This document shows, piece by piece, positions 203-9,436 of a stretch of DNA of 36,024 nt. The notes under the pieces were generated by a model, which saw nothing but the letters and a program-made list of their open reading frames with translations, did no database searches and was not told the DNA's origin. Numbering within the stretch: the stretch's first letter is position 1; every line of letters begins with the position of its first letter. The DNA lies in assembly GCA_030749035.1 (NCBI GenBank), contig JASMKV010000527.1:1-36024 (forward strand). Reading direction: 5' to 3'. The stretch comes from Myxococcota bacterium. GTDB taxonomy: Bacteria > Myxococcota > XYA12-FULL-58-9 > JASMKV01. The position numbers were made by a program, and so were the translations under genes.

Positions 203-3200
203 TTAATTACAGCTTCCTTCGGTGCATATATTACTGAGGCATTCATAATTTGCCGTGCACACCACGCCAGCACCTTTAAGGGTACATTCACCACTGAGAC
301 CTACGCTATCACAACAATATTTGCCCGCCGAAGCCGTATTGGTCTCCATGTCTTTACATACCGCAAAGATGCCATAGGTGTCGTCGGTGGTGTGGTGGTT
401 ACGCCAGGCGGCGCAGAGGGTTTGGTTATGATTTGTATCGCGCGGGCCCAAAGCAAAGCTCAGCTCCGCGGCAACACCACTGGCATCGTTGATTTGCGCT
501 AGAATTGTCGAGGTTTCGGTGGCGCTTTTAGCGCGGCCCATCGTTGTCCAGGCACCATTAAAATGGCCAACAATCTGTACATTGGAGCTGCTGCCGTCCG
601 CTTCCGTGCAGGCGCCATTCCAGGCACAACCTTTTTCTTCGCACTCTGATTGCGTGGTATAGCTATCGCAATCATTTTGCCAACCGAGAATATTGTGAGC
701 GCAGGCGCTGGTTTCATAATTCAGGGTACCCAGCAGCAGATTGGCATCACCACTACTGTTCACGTCGTTCACAGCAGAAGCCACCTCCCAAGTATTGGTT
801 TCTGTTTTATAGTACAGACCTTTTACTTCCTGCGCATCGTTGTTGAGAAAAGTTATTCTGGGCGTACCGTAGGCACCGTTGCGGACGCGGGGTTGGCTGA
901 AATCCTGGGTGGTGTCAGCGCTGAGGCCATAAGATTCATCGGTAGCGTGGCCCGCAGGTGCATTTCCGGCATCGCCCCATTTGTTTTCGGGATCGAGGCG
1001 CCGCACAAAAACGCCCGATTGCGCCACAGATGTACTTGCTGAGGTGGTGTAGCCATCTTGTTCCCAGGCGATATAGTAGGTCCAGTCATCGTTGAGGCTA
1101 GCGCCAGTCACTGGTGCTTCGCAAGCGCCAGCATCCCAAAAGCAGTAGTTGTCCGCATTGCAATTTCCCGCACCGGTCCGGCTGCTGCAGTCAATATGGA
1201 TACGGCTCCAACTCAAATCGGGACGACTGACATTGTTGTAAAGTATTATACATGTATCATTATCCCAGTAACAGCCCGCGGTTGCACAAGCTGGTGAGGC
1301 AACATGTTGACTACAAATACCCGGATCGGCTTCGAGTTTGTGAGCAATATTATCGCTGCCCGCGTATTCGCCGACGCCCTCAACATCGCCCGAAAGCACA
1401 CAGGCACTGGAGTTGCTGGCGTAACAATCATCGCTTGAACCGTTCCAGGTACATCCCTGTTCAACGCAGGAATCATAATTTCCAATGTACTGAGAGCAGG
1501 CCTCTTTTTTCCAGTAGTAGCAGGCATAAATTGCGCTGGGATCCTTAAAAGTGTAGGACGACACCGGTATTTTCCAGGTTGTAATGTCATCTCCATCGCT
1601 CTTGTCTTCACTTTTAACCACATAGCTTAAGGCCACATCTCCGGGCTCTACAGAGTTTGATGCATTGGTGGTCGTGCCGTGGGTGACAATAGCGATATCT
1701 GGATCGTAGAGCGTATAGGTGACGTCGTCCGTGTTTTCATAATCATTATGATAACCCAGGAGCTTATGCTGCCATGTCCCTTCACCGGCCGGTTTGGCAA
1801 AGGCCAGCGCCTGAACCATCTGCTTCTGGGCGGTGATATCGACATCACAGCAGGTGTTCGTCCAGGTTGAATCGGAATTGTAGCTGCAGGTATGGCTGTC
1901 GGGACAGTTTGTATCGCTGTCGCATGGAAGGTAAAACTGGCCGCTGCTCTGGTTATATTCACAGGAATCCCCGTCCCATTCACACTGCCACGCGTTTTCA
2001 CAAATGGACTCTGTTAAATCCCCACACACGTAGCTTTCCTGAGAGCATATAAATTTCTCGGCCCAGACGATGGCAACGACTTCCACCTCCTCCGCGGTGC
2101 CCGCACCCACATCGACGTCTATCTTTTCATACGTCAGACGAGGCATCGCCAGACCATCATGGGCTTGCTCGCGTGTATTGAGTGGAAAGACAGGGAATTT
2201 GTTGTTCCAGAATTCCAGCATTCTATCCCAATAGAGCCAGGCACCCTCTGTAGGATCCCAGCGGCGCAAATAGATGTCGTTGGTGTGCGTATCCCGGTAG
2301 ACGATCCAGGGATTGCCATCCTTATCGACAATCATATCGGGTTCAGCGTGGTCGTGTTGATTGGCCTCGGGTGAACTTCCATCAACGCTTTCAATAAAGA
2401 CCTCATCCGCACTCAATCCGTATGCGCACACAGAATTGCCCGAACCGGTCCAGGCGTTGGAATAGTCATTGGTCGTATTGTTGCCGGCAAAGGGACAGGT
2501 ACAGGCCTCCGTATCCCAGGGTGTTGCGGCCGGGCAGCCCTGGCCACCGGTGGGGGCTGCCGTGCAGACAGAATCCTCACAGATTTTCCCCGGATGCAAA
2601 ATGGAGCATTCCTCTCCTGCGCAGGCTAGATCGTCACAATCGCTGACATCATTGTCGTTATTATCCAGAATATCACTGCACTCGGTTTCAGGTCCGGAGA
2701 TACAGGTGCCACCTTGTTCGGCACCGCCTGAGGGGCAATGCGGATCACAAGCGCAACCCTCATCGCAGGTACCGTCTATGATATCGCAGCCGCAATAGCA
2801 GTCGTTTGCGGTGCATTCTGCGTTGCTTTCACAATACGCGCCATAATTATGCGTGCATTGGCTGCCATCGCATGTCCAGTAGCCACTACAGTTGTTCCCG
2901 TTAAAGTTACAGCCCGTGGTGCATTCATCATCGTAACAATGGGCGCCACCGCCACCGTTGCTCTCACAGGCATTTACATCACATACACAGTGATTGGAAT
3001 ACGTGTCGATTTGACAAGCTTCCTCATCCCCACAATGGGTATCCTCTGTACATTCGACACATGCATATTGGCTGCTGTTGACTTCTTTGCAATATTCCTC
3101 TTCCCCGCAATGGGCATCTTCGGTGCAGTCGACACAGACACTGGATATATTGGAGATTGTGATACAATGTTGTTCTGTGTTGCAGGAATAGGTCCCTTCA

Positions 3201-5869
3201 TAATTTCGGCAGTGTCCGGCGAAACAGTCCGGGTCGGCTGCATCGATGGCACCGTCGAAATCGTCGTCTGCTTCATTGTCGCACCAGCCAGGCACCAGGG
3301 CTTCGTTACGACCCTGACTGGTGCATTCGACCCGGTCGTCATCGATATAGTAGGAACCGCTTTTGGCGCGACAATATTCACTGGTGCCGCTACAAGAGGC
3401 CGGGCATTCGACACAGGTGGAAAAAGTCGTATCGTTTAAGTCGAGAGTTGTATCCTCATTGTCATTCCAGCCCAGCACGTTGACACAGACAGCAACGTAG
3501 TTTCCGGCGGGACAGGACTCCCAATCATTCGAGCCTACATCTTTTGTCGCGCAGGCATCGAGTACTTCGTAGCAAACCCCCTGAGGGGAACCATCCCGCC
3601 AGAGCGTGACGCATTGACCACTGCAAGGCTCATTGTTGTCGCATGTTGTCCGGCATTGGTATTCATGGGTGCAGATTTCGTCCTGACCACATTCACCGTC
3701 GGTAAGACACTGGATACACCCGGTTGTGTTGTCCTCAGCGGTGAAGCATTTCTTTCCATTCGTACTGCAGGTGGTGTTTGTTTGGCCTGGTGTACAGAGG
3801 CCATCTTCACATCTGCTGCAGCTGTCATCCCCCGTATAACACTCCGCATTGGTCGTACACTCAAGCGTGCAAGCATTATAGCCGGAGACGCAACCATACC
3901 CTTCTTCGCAATGCTCATTGCCTTCACAATCCACACAGTCGTAGTAACCATTGTCTGTACGGCAAATTTGACCCTCGCCGCAGTCGTCATTGTTGCCGCA
4001 AGACCCACAGGTCGATCCGGTGCTGTTGCCGCCGTATTCGTAGACAACACAGGATGTTCCGTTGGTGCAGCCAGGATTGTTGCTCCAGTATTGACAGATG
4101 TTGTCGATACACGAATAACATTCCGAACCATAGTTGAAACAATCGGGGTGCTCTGTACATTCGTAATCGCATTCAAGCGCGTCCGTATAACTCCGCGCCT
4201 CGTTCGAACAATTCCCGTCCAGGCAGCGACAACCCTCTGCACAAAAACAGGGAATGCAGACCACTTCGGTTTCTGCAGCGCCCTCAGCATCGTACTTGGT
4301 GCTCCAGTTGCAGAGTCCACCCCTGTCATCGGGCAGGGTGCAGTCATCGCCGGCAGAATCGCTCTCATCATCATCGCAGACCGGCGCGCAGCGCTTTTCC
4401 TCATCGCCGAAATCCACACAGCTTTCACCTTCCCCACACTCTGTTGCATTTGTGCACGTGCTGAACATGCAGTAGGGCGCAGCGTCTATTGTCATACAAA
4501 AGGTGAGCCCAGGGTTCTGCGCACACTCAGCGTGGGAGTCGCAGGCACGACAGCGGATGTATTCGTTGGCGGGCTCACCATAAGCCACATCATCCCAGAC
4601 GTTATAAGCACAATCTCCGGCACATTCGCTTGGGCAGGGCACGCAGACCGACTCCGCATTGCGTTCCTCTGTGCTTTCGAGCCACTCCTCGGCAAGCAGA
4701 ACGGATGCACAAACCCCGTCGTTGTTGTTGATGTCGGTGCACTCGCCTTCGACATTACCACAAAAGTTCATTACATCGCTGGTGGGAATGTTGTCCCCGT
4801 TAACTTCCGTAATGACGCAAAAGCCGCTGCCGTCGAGGTAGGCAGGATTGTCCAGGCAGCCCTGCATGGCGTCGTGACAGTCCGCATCGCATCTGCACAT
4901 TTCGCCCATAAACGCACCGTCGTTATTGTAGTCACAATCGCCGGTGTTGTAATCGCAGTCGCAGCGGCAAAATTTTGTACCGTTGTTTTCAGCGCAGTAT
5001 TCGTGGTCGTCGCAGTAGGGATTTTCCTCGATGCAACTTATCACGCAGTCCGGGCAATCGTATTCCCAACCTTCGCAAGTGCCATCAAAATCGCATGTAT
5101 TGTTATTATCACAATCCGAACAATTGGTTTCATCCGCGCCACAAAATCCATCGTAGTTGCATTTTTCATTGGACGCATTGCCGGCACATGCAAGGGCATC
5201 GGTAAAATAGCCGCCCTGGCCACCGGAACTAAAATCGCAATCGTTCATATCGGCACAGATTGAGTTGGCGGAACATGGGGCACAAGCTTGCGTGGTGTTG
5301 CCCTTCACGCCTTCGAGGACCAGACAATGCCCTTCGTCGCCGCGGTAGTGGGCGCATTGATCACCGATATTGTCGCATTGCGGCACGCAGATGCCCGGAG
5401 CGGCTGGGTTGTCGGTCGCCACACAGCGGTGGTTGCCCGGGCATTGGTCATTATCGTTGCAGCCAATGCAAGCAAAGCCGCCGGGGAGCTGTCTGTCGTT
5501 GTGGCACTCGAGTGCGGGGTAGCGTGAACAAAACGTCGTACCCACAGCATCGCAGGGATTTAGGCATTGGTTATGCTGACCGGAGCCATAACAGATTTCT
5601 TCTTGTTCACAGTTTTGAGTCTCGCTGCAGCTGATCGAGTTTTCCGCATTGACGCATACGCCTTTGGAGTAATCGGTTTCTGAATCGCCATAGCCTGAGT
5701 GATGTAGTGCTTCGAGCCATTTATAGCAGACAAAGAATTTCCCCTGGGTGTTGAGGCAGTCGTCGTCGCTTTGACACACGTAGGTTTGCTCAAAAGCGTC
5801 GGGCAAATCCGGGATACAGCCAAAGACCGTGAACAAAACAAGCAGAAGTGGGGCAAAAATGCGTTGCAT
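203..5869 (-). CDS. Giant cysteine-rich lipoprotein with beta-propeller-like C-terminal region
   Basis: A 1888-residue protein of unknown function. The N-terminus is a lipoprotein signal: a hydrophobic stretch ending VFGC, with Cys18 as the likely lipidated residue, so it is probably anchored in the outer membrane. Cysteine makes up about one residue in eight of the first 350. Short disulfide-rich repeats include two tandem C-x5-C units near 238-280 and two near-identical CVxCTEDxHCGxEExC units near 911-950. Asp-rich loops such as DDDFDGAID and LDNNDNDVSDCDD resemble the calcium-binding motifs of myxobacterial MopE-like proteins. From about 1160 to 1850 the chain becomes propeller-like, with strands such as PDMIVDKDGNPWIVYRD and GVFVRRLDP, interrupted by five small modules with a CxW core. 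The extreme C-terminus returns to a Cys-rich repeat. It is transcribed away from tatD. A surface adhesion or binding role is only a guess. Confidence 0.88.
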   Translation of the reverse strand: MQRIFAPLLLVLFTVFGCIPDLPDAFEQTYVCQSDDDCLNTQGKFFVCYKWLEALHHSGYGDSETDYSKGVCVNAENSISCSETQNCEQEEICYGSGQHNQCLNPCDAVGTTFCSRYPALECHNDRQLPGGFACIGCNDNDQCPGNHRCVATDNPAAPGICVPQCDNIGDQCAHYRGDEGHCLVLEGVKGNTTQACAPCSANSICADMNDCDFSSGGQGGYFTDALACAGNASNEKCNYDGFCGADETNCSDCDNNNTCDFDGTCEGWEYDCPDCVISCIEENPYCDDHEYCAENNGTKFCRCDCDYNTGDCDYNNDGAFMGEMCRCDADCHDAMQGCLDNPAYLDGSGFCVITEVNGDNIPTSDVMNFCGNVEGECTDINNNDGVCASVLLAEEWLESTEERNAESVCVPCPSECAGDCAYNVWDDVAYGEPANEYIRCRACDSHAECAQNPGLTFCMTIDAAPYCMFSTCTNATECGEGESCVDFGDEEKRCAPVCDDDESDSAGDDCTLPDDRGGLCNWSTKYDAEGAAETEVVCIPCFCAEGCRCLDGNCSNEARSYTDALECDYECTEHPDCFNYGSECYSCIDNICQYWSNNPGCTNGTSCVVYEYGGNSTGSTCGSCGNNDDCGEGQICRTDNGYYDCVDCEGNEHCEEGYGCVSGYNACTLECTTNAECYTGDDSCSRCEDGLCTPGQTNTTCSTNGKKCFTAEDNTTGCIQCLTDGECGQDEICTHEYQCRTTCDNNEPCSGQCVTLWRDGSPQGVCYEVLDACATKDVGSNDWESCPAGNYVAVCVNVLGWNDNEDTTLDLNDTTFSTCVECPASCSGTSEYCRAKSGSYYIDDDRVECTSQGRNEALVPGWCDNEADDDFDGAIDAADPDCFAGHCRNYEGTYSCNTEQHCITISNISSVCVDCTEDAHCGEEEYCKEVNSSQYACVECTEDTHCGDEEACQIDTYSNHCVCDVNACESNGGGGAHCYDDECTTGCNFNGNNCSGYWTCDGSQCTHNYGAYCESNAECTANDCYCGCDIIDGTCDEGCACDPHCPSGGAEQGGTCISGPETECSDILDNNDNDVSDCDDLACAGEECSILHPGKICEDSVCTAAPTGGQGCPAATPWDTEACTCPFAGNNTTNDYSNAWTGSGNSVCAYGLSADEVFIESVDGSSPEANQHDHAEPDMIVDKDGNPWIVYRDTHTNDIYLRRWDPTEGAWLYWDRMLEFWNNKFPVFPLNTREQAHDGLAMPRLTYEKIDVDVGAGTAEEVEVVAIVWAEKFICSQESYVCGDLTESICENAWQCEWDGDSCEYNQSSGQFYLPCDSDTNCPDSHTCSYNSDSTWTNTCCDVDITAQKQMVQALAFAKPAGEGTWQHKLLGYHNDYENTDDVTYTLYDPDIAIVTHGTTTNASNSVEPGDVALSYVVKSEDKSDGDDITTWKIPVSSYTFKDPSAIYACYYWKKEACSQYIGNYDSCVEQGCTWNGSSDDCYASNSSACVLSGDVEGVGEYAGSDNIAHKLEADPGICSQHVASPACATAGCYWDNDTCIILYNNVSRPDLSWSRIHIDCSSRTGAGNCNADNYCFWDAGACEAPVTGASLNDDWTYYIAWEQDGYTTSASTSVAQSGVFVRRLDPENKWGDAGNAPAGHATDESYGLSADTTQDFSQPRVRNGAYGTPRITFLNNDAQEVKGLYYKTETNTWEVASAVNDVNSSGDANLLLGTLNYETSACAHNILGWQNDCDSYTTQSECEEKGCAWNGACTEADGSSSNVQIVGHFNGAWTTMGRAKSATETSTILAQINDASGVAAELSFALGPRDTNHNQTLCAAWRNHHTTDDTYGIFAVCKDMETNTASAGKYCCDSVGLSGECTLKGAGVVCTANYECLSNICTEGSCN

Positions 5870-6038
5870 ATTGTTCGTTTAGACTCTCTTACGTTGCGTT
5901 GGTTCAATGCCAATTCTGGGCCAGCCATAACCCATTCATTCATGACGTCGCAAGAGCACATTTTATTTTGTTTTTAGAGCCCTTTTTGTGCCCGCTGCCG
6001 GCCGCTTTGAGAGATAAAAGGTAAGAAGTTTTAGGTCC

Positions 6039-6067
6039 TTGGCTTTATCTGGTGCTTTGTTTATGCT
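6039..6067 (+). promoter_or_regulatory. Candidate promoter for the TatD gene
   Basis: TTGGCT at 6039-6044 and TATGCT at 6062-6067 each match the sigma-70 consensus at four of six positions and are separated by exactly 17 bases. Transcription would begin near 6074, leaving a short leader before the ATG at 6094. This also argues against starts upstream of the -10 box, such as 6052. Confidence 0.4.
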
Positions 6068-6093
6068 CAAAGCCAAGATCGGAAATGAGAGCC

Positions 6094-6873
6094 ATGTACA
6101 TTGATGCCCACTGTCATTTGGAAAAAGAAACCTACGGCGATGAACTCGAAGCGGTTATTGAGCGGGCCGGGCAGGCTGGTTTGAGCCATTTGATTGCGGT
6201 TGGCGCTTCCCGGGTCTGCGCCGGCGCCGCCGAAGCACAGGCCTTGGCCGAGCGTTACGCCCACATCTATTTTACAGCGGGTATCCATCCGCATGAGGCC
6301 CAGCATGCAAGTGCGGAAGAAATCGCCAAAATTCGTGGATTTTTAGACCATCCCAAGCTGGTGGCCCTTGGCGAGATTGGCTTGGACTTCTTCTACGACA
6401 ACTCACCGCGAGATGAGCAACGCTCTGTTTTTAAAGAACTTTTAGCTATGTCTCGGGATACGAATGTGCCGGCCATGTTTCATATTCGTGATGCGCATCC
6501 AGAGACTCTGGCCATCATCGATGAAGTGGGTTTACCGGAGCGTGGCGCCGTGGTGCACTGCTTTACAGCCGGACCCGCGGAGGCCCAGGAGTATTTAAAA
6601 CGCGGGGTGTATTTGTCCATTCCTGGGGTGGTGACTTTTAAGAAGGCTGAAGAATTACGCCAAGCGGTGGCGCAAATTCCCTTAGAGCGGATGTTGATTG
6701 AGACCGATTGTCCTTATTTGGCACCGGTGCCTTATCGGGGTCAGCGTAACGAGCCGGCCTACGTGGTGAAAACAGCCGAAAAAATAGCTGAAATCAGGAA
6801 CTTACCCTTGGAAGAGGTGGCCAGGGCGACAAGTCAAAACGCCTCGGCTTTTTACCGGCTCGATGGGGCGTAA
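6094..6873 (+). CDS. TatD-family metal-dependent hydrolase (DNase)
   Basis: A 259-residue TIM-barrel hydrolase of the TatD/YcfH family, cytoplasmic 3'-5' exonucleases that use two metal ions. The family's metal ligands are visible: DAHCHL with His6 and His8, the Glu of LGEIGLDF near 94, His130 in MFHIRDAH, His155 in VVHCFTAG, and Asp205 in IETDCPYLAP followed by the usual RGQRNEP. I start at MYIDAHCHL because YcfH-type proteins have only three or four residues before the DxHCH motif. An ATG three codons upstream at 6085 is also possible; the longer start at 6052 overlaps the candidate promoter. The gene stands alone between the divergent lipoprotein and the rimP operon. TatD and YcfH subgroups cannot be separated here. 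Confidence 0.93.
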   Translation: MYIDAHCHLEKETYGDELEAVIERAGQAGLSHLIAVGASRVCAGAAEAQALAERYAHIYFTAGIHPHEAQHASAEEIAKIRGFLDHPKLVALGEIGLDFFYDNSPRDEQRSVFKELLAMSRDTNVPAMFHIRDAHPETLAIIDEVGLPERGAVVHCFTAGPAEAQEYLKRGVYLSIPGVVTFKKAEELRQAVAQIPLERMLIETDCPYLAPVPYRGQRNEPAYVVKTAEKIAEIRNLPLEEVARATSQNASAFYRLDGA

Positions 6874-6879
6874 AGCCCC
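6865..6879 (+). terminator. Short GC hairpin over the TatD stop codon
   Basis: GGGGC at 6865-6869 pairs with GCCCC at 6875-6879 around a 5-base loop that contains the TAA stop. The downstream sequence is T-rich (a run of five T begins around 6893) but the run is not directly at the stem, so termination would be weak at best. Confidence 0.25.
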
Positions 6880-6911
6880 TTGAATGCCTATATTTTTCCG
6901 TTTTTGATCGA

Positions 6912-6938
6912 TTGACAAGCCTGGCTTGGCGTTATAGC
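6912..6938 (+). promoter_or_regulatory. Candidate promoter of the rimP-nusA-infB operon
   Basis: TTGACA at 6912-6917 is a perfect -35 hexamer. The best -10 is TATAGC at 6933-6938, with four of six matches and a short 15-base spacer; TAGCTA at 6935-6940 has the ideal 17-base spacer but a poor match. Transcription would start near 6945, giving a leader of about 100 bases that contains the hairpin at 7010-7036. Confidence 0.45.
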
Positions 6939-7009
6939 TAAGCGCCGTTGGTTGGGTGGAGTCCAGGGCGCTGGGTTCCAAGGTCGAGGAAATCGCTGGC
7001 TTAAACAAG

Positions 7010-7036
7010 TGGGCTTTAACGAAGCCCATTTTTTTT
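7010..7036 (+). terminator. Intrinsic terminator in the rimP leader (probable attenuator)
   Basis: TGGGCTT at 7010-7016 pairs perfectly with AAGCCCA at 7022-7028 around the loop TAACG and is followed directly by eight T at 7029-7036, a textbook Rho-independent terminator. It stands 14 bases before the rimP ATG and after the only evident promoter, so it can act only as an attenuator or as the end of a short leader RNA. Leader hairpins before rimP are known in gammaproteobacteria (the Rfam family called rimP leader). Upstream, TGGGTTC at 6972-6978 could pair with GAAGCCCA at 7021-7028 with one bulged G and so block the terminator. Confidence 0.75.
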
Positions 7037-7050
7037 ATCTACGGATGGAT

Positions 7051-7512
7051 ATGAGTACTGCCTTAGAATCTAAAATTGAAGAGCTATTACAGCCACTTAT
7101 TGAGGCTGAGGGCTACGATTTGGTTTTGGTGGAATATCTGTCTGGATCGAAGATTTTGCGTCTTTTTGTGGATAAAGAGGGAGGCATCTCCTTAGAAGAT
7201 TGTGGGACGGTCTCGCATTTGGTCAGTGATGTTTTGGATGCGGACGGTGCGATGCAAGGCATCGATGGTTCTTATAAATTAGAAGTGTCATCGCCAGGCT
7301 TGGATCGACCACTGGTGCGGCCCAAGGATTTTATACGTTTTGTTGGCTCTGAGGCGAAGATCACCACGGCGATGGCGGTTGATGGTCGGCGTCGGTTTTT
7401 AGGTGAACTTAAAGAGGCGAATGAAGATGGAATATGTATCGTAAGTGCTGGTCAGGCATGGCTTATCGCTTATGAAAATATAGAGAAAGCGCGTTTGGTG
7501 CCTACTTTTTAA
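7051..7512 (+). CDS. rimP: Ribosome maturation factor RimP
   Basis: A 153-residue cytoplasmic factor needed for late maturation of the 30S subunit. The two-domain pattern is clear: an N-terminal alpha/beta domain with EGYDLVLVEY and LRLFVDKEGG, the family signature YKLEVSSPGLDRPL near the middle, then an SH3-like C-terminal domain ending NIEKARLVPTF. The start at MSTALESK mirrors the E. coli start MSTLEQK and gives normal length. An ATG two codons upstream at 7045 is nearly as good. Starts further up would run through the terminator hairpin. The gene is followed by nusA after 37 bases, the standard order. Expression is probably controlled by the leader hairpin. Confidence 0.95.
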   Translation: MSTALESKIEELLQPLIEAEGYDLVLVEYLSGSKILRLFVDKEGGISLEDCGTVSHLVSDVLDADGAMQGIDGSYKLEVSSPGLDRPLVRPKDFIRFVGSEAKITTAMAVDGRRRFLGELKEANEDGICIVSAGQAWLIAYENIEKARLVPTF

Positions 7513-7549
7513 AGGCAGCATGAGTGCAAAGCGTTTGTGAGGAAATAAA

Positions 7550-9436
7550 ATGGAACCCAATTTGAGTATTGTTCTTGATCAGGTAAGCCGGGACAAAGGC
7601 ATTGAGCGGAAGATTTTGGTCTCCGCCTTAGAGGAAGCGATTTTGGCCTCGGCGAAGAAAGCCTTTGGCATGGATCGTAACCTTGTGGCTGAGTTTAACG
7701 AAGAAAAAGGCGCAGTTGATTTAACCCAAACCATTACGGTTGTGGTGGAATTAACAGATGCGGCGAATGAATTTACCGTGGCCCAATGCGAGGAACTTGA
7801 AATTGAGGTCGAGGAAGGCGATGAGATGGTTTTTCCAATTTATTATTTGGAAGAAGATGCTCAGGCCGCCCAAGAGCAAGACGAGGAATATGGAGATATC
7901 TTGCGTCTGAAAACTTACCGCCACTCTTTTGGTCGTATTGCCGCCCAGACCGCCAAGCAGGTTATCATGCAGCGTATTCGCGATGCGGAGCGCGGCATTG
8001 TTTATGGCGAGTATAAAGACCGTCGTGGTGAAATGGTCACCGGTATTGTACGTCGTTTCGAACGTGGCAATTTAATCATCGATTTAGGCCGTGCAGAAGC
8101 GATTTTGCCGGCGCGCGAACAGGCGCCCCGTGAATCCTATCGTTCAGGCGACAGGGTTTCAGCGTTCGTGAAGGAAGTTCAGGAAATCGCCCGTGGCCCA
8201 CAAATTGTTTTATCAAGAACATGTCCAGAAATTCTGATTAAACTTTTTGAAGCAGAGGTTCCCGAAATTCACGAAGGTATTGTGCGTATTGAAAGCGCAG
8301 CTCGAGAACCAGGCGCGCGCGCTAAAATTGCGGTGGCGTCTTCTGATCGAGATGTCGATCCAGTAGGGGCATGTGTTGGCATGAAGGGTTCACGCGTTCA
8401 GGCTGTGGTGCAGGAACTTCGTGGTGAGAAGATTGATATTGTGCCTTGGTCGCCAGATCCGGCAACTTTCGTGTGCAATGCGTTGCAGCCCGCAGAAGTG
8501 ACGCGTGTTCTTATTGATGAAGCCAATCAGCGTATGGAAATTATTGTTCCTGATGACCAACTTTCTTTGGCGATTGGTCGTAAAGGGCAAAATGTACGTT
8601 TGGCATCGGAAGTCACCGGTTGGAAACTCGATATTTATTCTGAATCCCGTATTAACGAGATTAAGGACCGCGCTTGGGTGAGCTTGGGCAAGGTTGAAGG
8701 CTGTAATGAGTTTATGATTCAAACGCTTTATAACCACGGTATTCGTTCGGCTGGCGATTTGTCCGGCGCTGAGCGTGACTTTATTGCACAGTTTCCAGGC
8801 TTGCAGGAAGAAGGCTTAGATGACCTTTTGGCGAGTGCTCGGGTTGTGGCCAAAGAAGAGCGCGCATCTGAAGCTGCCGCTGAAATTGAAGCACAGCGTG
8901 CCGTACGTGCGGCGAATGCGGCAAAGCGTCTACAAGCGATTTTAGGATTAAGTGCAGAAGACCGAATTCGCAAAATTAGAGGTTTGGGTGAGACCAGCTT
9001 AAAGGCCTTGTTGGAAGGTGGTTACAACACCTTGGAAGCTGTTGCAGAAGCCACAGTTGAAAAGTTGGCCGAAGACACCGAATTGCTTGATCGAAAAGCC
9101 AAGCAGCTTGTGTATGGTGCGAAGACCGCGATCAAGGACGAGAATGAAATTCGCGAGTTGGCTGAGCAGTATGAGATCGAAGTGGTCGATGGTGTCGCCA
9201 AGTTGCCTTTTGATGAGGCCGCTGAAGCCGAAGCTGAGGCCGAAGCTGCTGCAGATGACACCGAAGCGACCGAGGAAGTTGCGGCTGCAGATGAAGCCAA
9301 AGCGACCAAGGATGTTGCTGCTGCAGATGATGCTGAAGCAACCGAAAAAGCTGCCGGCGAAGACGCTCAAGAGGTTTCGCCAGCTTTGAATGAAGTTGAA
9401 GAGAGCGAAGCCAACACAGAAGGTGCTGGCGCTTAA
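7550..9436 (+). CDS. nusA: Transcription termination/antitermination factor NusA
   Basis: A 628-residue RNA polymerase-binding elongation factor that affects pausing, termination and antitermination. In order: the N-terminal polymerase-binding domain (1 to about 150), S1 domain (about 157-222), KH1 with [13 protein letters not shown] near 270-300, and KH2 with [14 protein letters not shown] near 335-365. Helix-hairpin-helix acidic repeats follow, including [17 protein letters not shown]. The last 75 residues are an Ala/Glu/Asp tail containing three imperfect 12-residue repeats beginning [24 protein letters not shown] and [13 protein letters not shown]. coli NusA is 495 residues, so the tail accounts for much of the extra length. 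An AGGA ribosome site lies just before the ATG. It sits in the conserved rimP-nusA-infB order. Confidence 0.97.

What the first reader, a model, noticed from the sequence alone, without database searches (positions are those of the whole stretch)
203..2400. Five CxW cysteine modules inserted in a propeller-like region
Near residues 1275-1305, 1456-1483, 1520-1542, 1560-1585 and 1722-1756 a short module recurs: two or three cysteines, a CxW core (GCTWNG, GCYWDN, YCFWDA, GCAWNG, QCEWDG) and a closing cysteine. They sit between beta-strands of the propeller-like part, as if decorating loops. The pattern recalls PSI-like knots and repeat motifs of protist surface proteins. This regular insertion in one bacterial lipoprotein may reflect a ligand-binding face.
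Basis: partly seen in the sequence, partly recalled or inferred. Interest (0 to 1): 0.5.

Follow-up and report, generated by a model that had tools for sequence, protein, structure and literature searches.

The report
PSI-like cysteine modules in a lipoprotein
A large bacterial surface lipoprotein carries five copies of a tiny cysteine-and-tryptophan module, apparently inserted into loops of its main fold; the same module recurs in unrelated bacterial and archaeal proteins and resembles the core of the animal PSI domain, so it looks like a widely reused, clip-on surface decoration.

Summary
The 1888-aa putative lipoprotein (window 203-5869, minus strand) holds five modules C-x7-9-C-x4-5-C-x-W-[DN]-x2-5-C; none of 5000 shuffles gave five. 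They lie in three Cys-rich stretches separated by Cys-free spans.

The module is not peculiar to this protein. A 48-module profile matches all eight held genomes of its order and 6 of 187 others in the phylum; a scrambled control matches 0 of 195. A DNA pattern found it in DPANN archaea, Oligoflexales, Dokdonia, a UBP15 bacterium and others. It occurs alone in 61-64-aa peptides, in long arrays, and in FG-GAP propellers, vWA-like proteins and a cytochrome-like protein. In one FG-GAP family a loop is 17-33 aa in 21 of 29 anchored loci, but 159 and 316 aa with 2 and 5 modules in two paralogs.

A module model (pLDDT 82) is a short helix plus hairpin; the listed second-look matches are Sema/RON/plexin entries and the trypanosome VSG C-terminal domain, at low Z, 2.0-3.5.

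The window protein's own propeller is not shown: its AlphaFold model failed (pLDDT 35). A ligand-binding face is untested.

The parts
203..5869 (-). Host gene: 1888-aa protein with 191 Cys and a lipobox-like start (Cys18)
   Evidence: ORF and translation; no Pfam or NCBIfam family on the whole protein at E up to 10; lipoprotein call by eye from the first 24 residues
1961..2026 (-). Module M1, residues 1282-1303, CGDLTESICENAWQCEWDGDSC; extra Cys 1275 upstream and five Cys (1316-1341) downstream
1424..1498 (-). Module M2, residues 1458-1482, flanked by Cys 1450 and 1490; the least typical of the five
   Evidence: not found by profiles built without it
1250..1315 (-). Module M3, residues 1519-1540
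1121..1189 (-). Module M4, residues 1561-1583; modelled with 47 other modules (pLDDT 82.3, pTM 0.44, helix plus hairpin)
608..670 (-). Module M5, residues 1734-1754; extra Cys 1723 upstream
2051..2422 (-). Cys-free scaffold segment, residues 1150-1273; BNR-like blade signal at 1177-1205
1523..1837 (-). Cys-free scaffold segment, residues 1345-1449
713..1099 (-). Cys-free scaffold segment, residues 1591-1719
341..595 (-). Scaffold segment, residues 1759-1843, two Cys (1819, 1838)
206..340 (-). C-terminal Cys-rich tail, residues 1844-1888, 7 Cys, no CxW

Best explanation
The five CxW units are copies of an autonomous disulfide mini-domain of about 22 residues (short helix, then a beta-hairpin carrying C-x-W-[DN]-G). 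It can stand alone, be strung into arrays or be inserted between strands of an unrelated host fold; here five copies, in three Cys-rich stretches, interrupt a Cys-poor and probably propeller-like part of a surface lipoprotein. Shown by computation: the repeat itself, its recurrence in other proteins and hosts, and its insertion in a propeller loop of relatives. Inferred: that the window scaffold is a propeller; that the protein is a surface lipoprotein; that the four cysteines pair 1-3 and 2-4 as the equivalent four do in the RON PSI domain; and that the units act as rigid, protease-resistant knobs that lengthen loops and enlarge or vary the exposed surface, for adhesion or recognition, rather than sharing one ligand pocket, since beyond Cys and Trp mainly turn- and helix-like positions (T, G, D/N-G) are conserved.
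For: Repeat beyond chance. Cys-free spans of 139, 125 and 108 aa between the module stretches; 0 of 20000 shuffles reach the third-longest span. Autonomy: one module makes up most of what follows the leader in 61-64-aa peptides of two Dokdonia genomes; single copies sit in otherwise Cys-poor 573-746-aa open frames (L028, L036, L045); 27 and 33 copies above 8 bits in L035 and L043. Loop insertion. Order-wide recurrence: a profile of the window modules alone matches 5 of the 7 other order genomes in long Cys-rich frames, and 3 of 187 others in frames of 40-52 aa; the 48-module profile matches 8 of 8 against 6 of 187; for the 4 order genomes that gave it no row, 4 of 4 against 5 of 186, one training genome dropped, Fisher p 2.4e-6; scrambled profile 0 of 195. 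Fold: pLDDT 82.3, weak matches to semaphorin/RON and VSG C-terminal structures. Cys spacing: in RON PSI, C527-C536 and C545-C552 are 9 and 7 apart, as C1-C2 and C3-C4 of M4 are, and pair 527-545 and 536-552 (PMC3405059, passages).
Against: The window's own scaffold could not be modelled, has no relative found in 57 other genomes, in plasmids or in a genome-collection scan, and only one blade is recognisable, with a partly circular profile. M2-M4 lie close together and could pack as one unit; M2 is not recognised by profiles built without it. M1, M2 and M5 have extra cysteines, so disulfides outside the four-Cys core are possible. The structural matches are weak: Foldseek E 3.3 or worse, Z at most 3.5, for 33 residues; pTM 0.44. 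No coordinates were available, so pairing was not measured. In one search modules were counted with a pattern that also takes F or Y for W (one of the two in the smaller paralog has F); the profile scores 3 and 1 in these paralogs above 8 bits. No experiment bears on function.
Confidence: 0.6

Rival explanations
1. The module is a true, reduced member of the PSI / Paramecium surface antigen / VSG C-terminal group, sharing descent with it, and does what PSI does: orient the domains next to a propeller.
For: Weak Pfam hits that vanish on scrambling: Paramecium_SA 14 to 0, PSI 6 to 0, VSG-C 2 to 0 of 48. The seven second-look rows are VSG C-terminal and Sema/RON/plexin entries. C1-C2 and C3-C4 spacing of M4 equals that of RON PSI.
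Against: No Pfam family is reported for the whole protein or for its last 739 residues, and the M2-M4 piece stays under every cut-off. RON PSI has eight Cys and four disulfides, the module four Cys. PSI follows the propeller, whereas these seem to sit within it. The VSG match in the PDB sequence search survives scrambling, so it owes to spacing. LNR and Trefoil are also hit weakly by 3 and 2 of 48. A 22-residue fold converges easily.
Confidence: 0.3
2. M2-M4, or all five, form one continuous Cys-rich domain, or are cross-linked to one another, and are not separate loop insertions.
For: M2, M3 and M4 are 36 and 20 residues apart; extra Cys at 1275, 1450, 1490 and 1723.
Against: Single-module proteins and the 61-64-aa peptides; the core Cys are even within each module; paralogs with different copy numbers in the same loop.
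Confidence: 0.13
3. The insertions are neutral: easily duplicated, soluble, stable units that persist because loops tolerate them, with no binding role.
For: Copy number differs between paralogs; near-identical tandem copies in L031; no strongly conserved surface residue apart from likely turn positions.
Against: Presence in all eight held genomes of the order and in several unrelated hosts suggests use; the cost in cysteine is high.
Confidence: 0.3
4. The modules bind a metal ion, as LNR (Notch) repeats bind calcium (recalled).
For: Three of 48 modules hit the LNR profile weakly, best E 0.081; one weak hit in the M2-M4 piece, E 0.2.
Against: No set of conserved acidic residues; the position after Trp is D in 34 and N in 28 of 82; LNR has six Cys (recalled).
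Confidence: 0.05

Closest known systems
PSI domain (PF01437, plexin/semaphorin/integrin; RON 4fww)
   Same: C-x-W core in a hairpin; M4 has the C1-C2 and C3-C4 spacing of RON PSI; found beside beta-propellers; among the few structural matches
   Different: Half the cysteines; D/N where the second Cys of CxWC stands (recalled); apparently within the propeller, not after it; no Pfam report for the window protein
Paramecium surface antigen domain (PF01508)
   Same: 14 of 48 modules hit it weakly, none after scrambling; matches the second half of the profile (30-57 of 62)
   Different: About half the profile length; the one score seen above the cut-off came from a built tandem of four copies, and two other tandem pieces in the same call did not hit it
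Trypanosome VSG C-terminal domain (PF10659; 2jwg)
   Same: Best second-look match, Z 3.5 over 33 residues; 17.8 bits on the M2-M4 piece, below the cut-off of 21.4
   Different: 2 of 48 modules hit the Pfam model; the PDB sequence hit survives scrambling; GPI-anchored protein of a eukaryote
BNR-type propellers (PF15892, BNR_4)
   Same: Residues 1177-1205 resemble BNR_4-like repeats of the phylum
   Different: BNR_4 itself does not match anywhere in the genome; other blades not recognisable

Membership tests
PSI (PF01437) | Curated Pfam score reached by the window protein | tested here: not met
   No family for the whole protein at E up to 10 or for residues 1150-1888 at E up to 1; the M2-M4 piece gave no PSI hit; M4 alone none. 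Among 48 modules from many genomes 6 hit PSI, best E 5.5e-4, bit scores not shown
PSI (PF01437) | Eight cysteines in four disulfides, with a CxWC signature | tested here: not met
   Four core Cys per module and D/N after the Trp; eight Cys and their pairing in RON PSI from passages of PMC3405059; the CxWC signature is recalled
PSI (PF01437) | Same fold | tested here: inconclusive
   Second look: 8 of 16 chains with Z of 2 or more, seven entries listed, VSG C-terminal and Sema/RON/plexin, Z 2.0-3.5; Foldseek E 3.3 or worse
Paramecium surface antigen domain (PF01508) | Curated Pfam score reached by the window protein | tested here: not met
   Best for the window: E 0.14, 13.1 bits against a cut-off of 21.2, on the M2-M4 piece; a built tandem of four L031 copies reached 28.7 bits
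Trypanosome VSG C-terminal domain (PF10659) | Curated Pfam score reached by the window protein | tested here: not met
   17.8 bits against 21.4 on the M2-M4 piece
BNR-like beta-propeller (scaffold of the window protein) | Several recognisable four-strand blades | tested here: inconclusive
   One blade at about 14 bits, best of 200 shuffles 6.1, profile partly circular; AlphaFold pLDDT 34.7; no BNR_4 match in the genome
Bacterial outer-surface lipoprotein | Lipidation at Cys18 and surface exposure | not testable with these tools
   Start MQRIFAPLLLVLFTVFGC read by eye

The most novel reading that the evidence does not exclude
A minimal four-cysteine PSI-like unit acts as a portable clip-on domain across bacteria and DPANN archaea: it inserts into loops of unrelated hosts (BNR-like and FG-GAP propellers, vWA-like domains, a cytochrome c7-like protein), multiplies in arrays and also travels alone as a secreted peptide. 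It would be the prokaryotic counterpart, perhaps the ancestor, of the eukaryotic PSI, Paramecium surface antigen and VSG C-terminal modules.
Probability: 0.3. Interest if true: 0.68.

Novelty: new variant of a known kind. Interest (0 to 1): 0.5.

Why it matters
Small disulfide modules that decorate the loops of larger folds are familiar from animal and protist surface proteins. This gives a well-delimited bacterial and archaeal example that no Pfam or NCBIfam model reports in the window protein, with a natural experiment (paralogs with different copy numbers in one propeller loop). It makes testable whether PSI-like modules arose in prokaryotes, and offers a 22-residue unit that might be placed in loops by design.

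Tried and rejected
Whole-protein Pfam and NCBIfam scans gave nothing. AlphaFold of residues 1150-1888 alone was useless (pLDDT 34.7). No relative of the scaffold: the own genome and 57 others, plasmids, genome contigs (two pattern matches, neither confirmed); a module-less scaffold query gave only E 0.07 or worse outside the own genome. PDB search with the last 739 residues: best E 0.21. Self-alignment of scaffold blocks gave one short match and no blade repeat. BNR_4 in the own genome: none. The blade profile was built from two proteins found by weak similarity to the same scaffold, so its score is not independent. Viral contigs: 4 pattern matches, all in frames of 23-46 aa, taken as chance. 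Of the 27 genome contigs stretches I count 20 as real from their open frames and pattern, by judgement, 5 as chance (L029, L032, L037, L042, L044), and 2 (L046, L049) as Cys-rich proteins in which my pattern found no module; L028 and L035 are one genome. The five chance ones and the four viral ones were dropped, as were L030, L041 and L047, which duplicate G002, G004 and G006. The seed set (82 modules) excludes M2 and variants without W by construction and is weighted by the arrays of L035 and L043. vWA identity of several hosts rests on a DxSGS-like motif seen by eye and on sub-threshold Pfam hits (best E 0.0067, 17.5 bits against 27); L115, L116 and L117 gave no Pfam hit. PDB sequence hits to Sema3A and VSG are above E 0.1. 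NCBIfam on the tandem pieces and on the small peptides gave nothing near a cut-off. Of the 6 phylum genomes outside the order, three (G011, G108, G156) match in frames of 87-178 aa, one with a stop, and may be chance. Paper searches for a description of the module in prokaryotes showed none in their listings; the library is partial. Searches were not useful. Folds not listed are not excluded.

Full report
What is there. The finding lies in one gene, window 203-5869 on the minus strand, 1888 aa with 191 cysteines and a lipobox-like start. Five modules occur in its last 739 residues, at 1282-1303, 1458-1482, 1519-1540, 1561-1583 and 1734-1754, with the form C-x7-9-C-x4-5-C-x-W-[DN]-x2-5-C. In 5000 shuffles of the region the pattern averaged 0.0044 and never exceeded 1. 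The spacing between modules is not regular, M2-M4 form a cluster, and M2 is the least typical: profiles built without it find the other four only.

How they sit in the protein. The modules lie in three Cys-rich stretches (M1; M2-M4; M5) separated or preceded by spans without any cysteine: 125, 108 and 139 residues; 0 of 20000 shuffles match the third longest. This is what insertion of Cys-rich units into a Cys-poor scaffold would leave. The scaffold itself is hard to name. No relative was found in 57 other genomes, in plasmids or in a genome collection. A profile of BNR-like blades taken from two proteins of the phylum scores the module-less scaffold at 14.9 bits, nearly all from residues 1177-1205, against a best of 6.1 in 200 shuffles; other blades are not recognisable. 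Those two proteins came from a weak search with the same scaffold, so the test is partly circular; the repeats themselves match BNR_4 (47.9 bits). AlphaFold without an alignment gave pLDDT 34.7. So 'propeller-like' is plausible for this protein, and not shown.

The module elsewhere. In the own genome a profile of the five modules finds this protein, and nothing else better than E 0.4. The same profile, which holds no outside sequence, matches 9 of 195 genomes of the phylum at E 0.01: the own, 5 of the 7 others of its order (open frames of 806-3559 aa) and 3 of 187 others (frames of 40-52 aa). A profile of 48 modules matches 14 of 195 at E 0.001: all 8 of the order and 6 of 187 others; three of those six may be chance (short or broken frames). 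Leaving out genomes that gave rows to the profile, it is 4 of 4 against 5 of 186 (Fisher p 2.4e-6). The same 48 modules with all residues but C and W scrambled match 0 of 195. A DNA pattern for a common spacing hit 27 stretches of genome contigs, of which I judge 20 real from their open frames: two Woesearchaeota, one other DPANN archaeon, Myxococcales and other former Deltaproteobacteria, Oligoflexales, a UBP15 bacterium and two relatives of its protein, two Dokdonia and an alphaproteobacterium among them. All 13 genomes behind 14 of these loci, which by choice hold a module, match the profile, with 1 to 28 matches.

Hosts. The module stands alone behind a Gly-Gly-type leader in 61-64-aa peptides of Dokdonia. 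It occurs once in 573-746-aa open frames that have only 6 or 7 Cys (L028, L036, L045). L035 and L043 hold 27 and 33 copies above 8 bits, L031 seven near-identical repeats. It sits in FG-GAP proteins of G002, in vWA-like proteins (vWA is below Pfam thresholds) and in one open frame with cytochrome c7 and LVIVD matches above their cut-offs.

A natural insertion experiment. Two neighbouring paralogs of G002 (1392- and 1206-aa frames) are 71% and 68% identical on the two sides of a variable stretch. Among 30 loci of this FG-GAP family, 29 could be anchored (L089 could not). The stretch between a strand motif ending like E-I-V and the following W-V motif is 17-33 aa in 21; 159 aa with 2 modules and 316 aa with 5 modules in the two G002 paralogs; 62 aa in L066; 100 and 101 aa with 12 Cys but no CxW module in L076 and L077; and in three (L083, L091, L093) the upstream anchor was a more distant strand, so the loop length is not known, though L083 and L093 also hold 12 Cys. 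Modules were counted with a pattern that also accepts F or Y for W; one of the two in the smaller paralog has F, and the stricter profile scores 3 and 1. The loci are the best hits of a search, not a random sample. The module is thus a loop insertion in a propeller of relatives, which makes the same reading likely for the window protein.

What it resembles. The 48-module alignment gives pLDDT 82.3 and pTM 0.44: a helix at 12-17 and a hairpin at 22-24/27-29 of the 33-aa M4 piece. Foldseek gives eight weak rows; ranks 1 and 2 are semaphorin structures (the second recalled), rank 4 is the VSG C-terminal domain 2jwg, the others look unrelated. The second look aligned 16 chains, 8 with Z of 2 or more; the seven listed entries are 2jwg (Z 3.5) and Sema/RON/plexin structures (Z 2.0-3.0). 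That the aligned part is the PSI domain follows for RON from its residue numbers and is inferred for the others. Single modules hit Paramecium_SA (14 of 48), PSI (6), LNR (3), Trefoil (2) and VSG-C (2) weakly; none of these families is hit by the 48 scrambled modules, so the likeness goes beyond the spacing of C and W. The VSG match in the PDB sequence search does survive scrambling and should not be counted. In RON, the PSI cysteines 527, 536, 545 and 552 pair 527-545 and 536-552 (PMC3405059, passages read). Their spacings of 9 and 7 are those of C1-C2 and C3-C4 in M4 (other modules vary), and the aligned ranges (model 1-32, RON 522-556) fit this register. I infer a 1-3/2-4 pairing. Two further PSI disulfides, 533-567 and 548-558, have no counterpart. 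The module is therefore PSI-like, and not a PSI domain by its defining features. That PSI follows the propeller in semaphorins is from passages of PMC4308982.

How it most likely works. A secreted, oxidised, self-contained knob that lengthens loops of larger exposed folds. Beyond C and W the conserved positions in 82 seed modules are G before the third Cys (45), D or N after the Trp (62), G next (59) and T in the first loop (37); the seeds were chosen for C and W, so those two say nothing. These look like turn and helix-cap positions, which argues for a structural core with variable surfaces and against one shared ligand site. Adhesion or recognition is a guess that fits a large outer lipoprotein.

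Organism. The window is the whole of contig 527 of its genome. Related genomes G002, G004 and G006 have contigs of the same lengths as JALHOP010000001.1 (Myxococcota bin.157), JACRCV010000116.1 and MGST01000136.1 (Deltaproteobacteria), so the order belongs to Myxococcota by inference.

The confidence of the main reading was lowered from 0.62 to 0.60 because M2 is missed by profiles built without it and because the blade profile is partly circular.

Noticed in passing
L038 2883-3068 and 5613-5801; L048 3022-3216: Dokdonia peptides with an ...INGG leader followed by a single CxW module; L048 also holds a long frame (6016-7602) that by eye looks like a peptidase-VKOR-thioredoxin fusion, which could make the disulfides.
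   Followed up: partly
L120 1-4245: A single CxW module inside an open frame with cytochrome c7 (6.6e-7) and LVIVD (3.5e-6) matches, near haem-type CxxCH motifs.
   Followed up: partly
L035, L043: Open frames of more than 2600 aa with 27 and 33 CxW modules above 8 bits, running off both ends of the loci.
   Followed up: partly
L031 1-708: Almost identical 31-aa CxW repeats in tandem at a contig end: recent expansion or an assembly effect.
   Followed up: no
L076, L077, L083, L093: The propeller loop that holds CxW modules in G002 holds a different 12-Cys insert in other members of the FG-GAP family (loop limits uncertain in L083 and L093), so this loop may be a general site for Cys-rich insertions.
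   Followed up: partly
window 2423-5869: The first 1149 residues of the same protein hold 153 cysteines in other patterns, without any Pfam or NCBIfam match.
   Followed up: no
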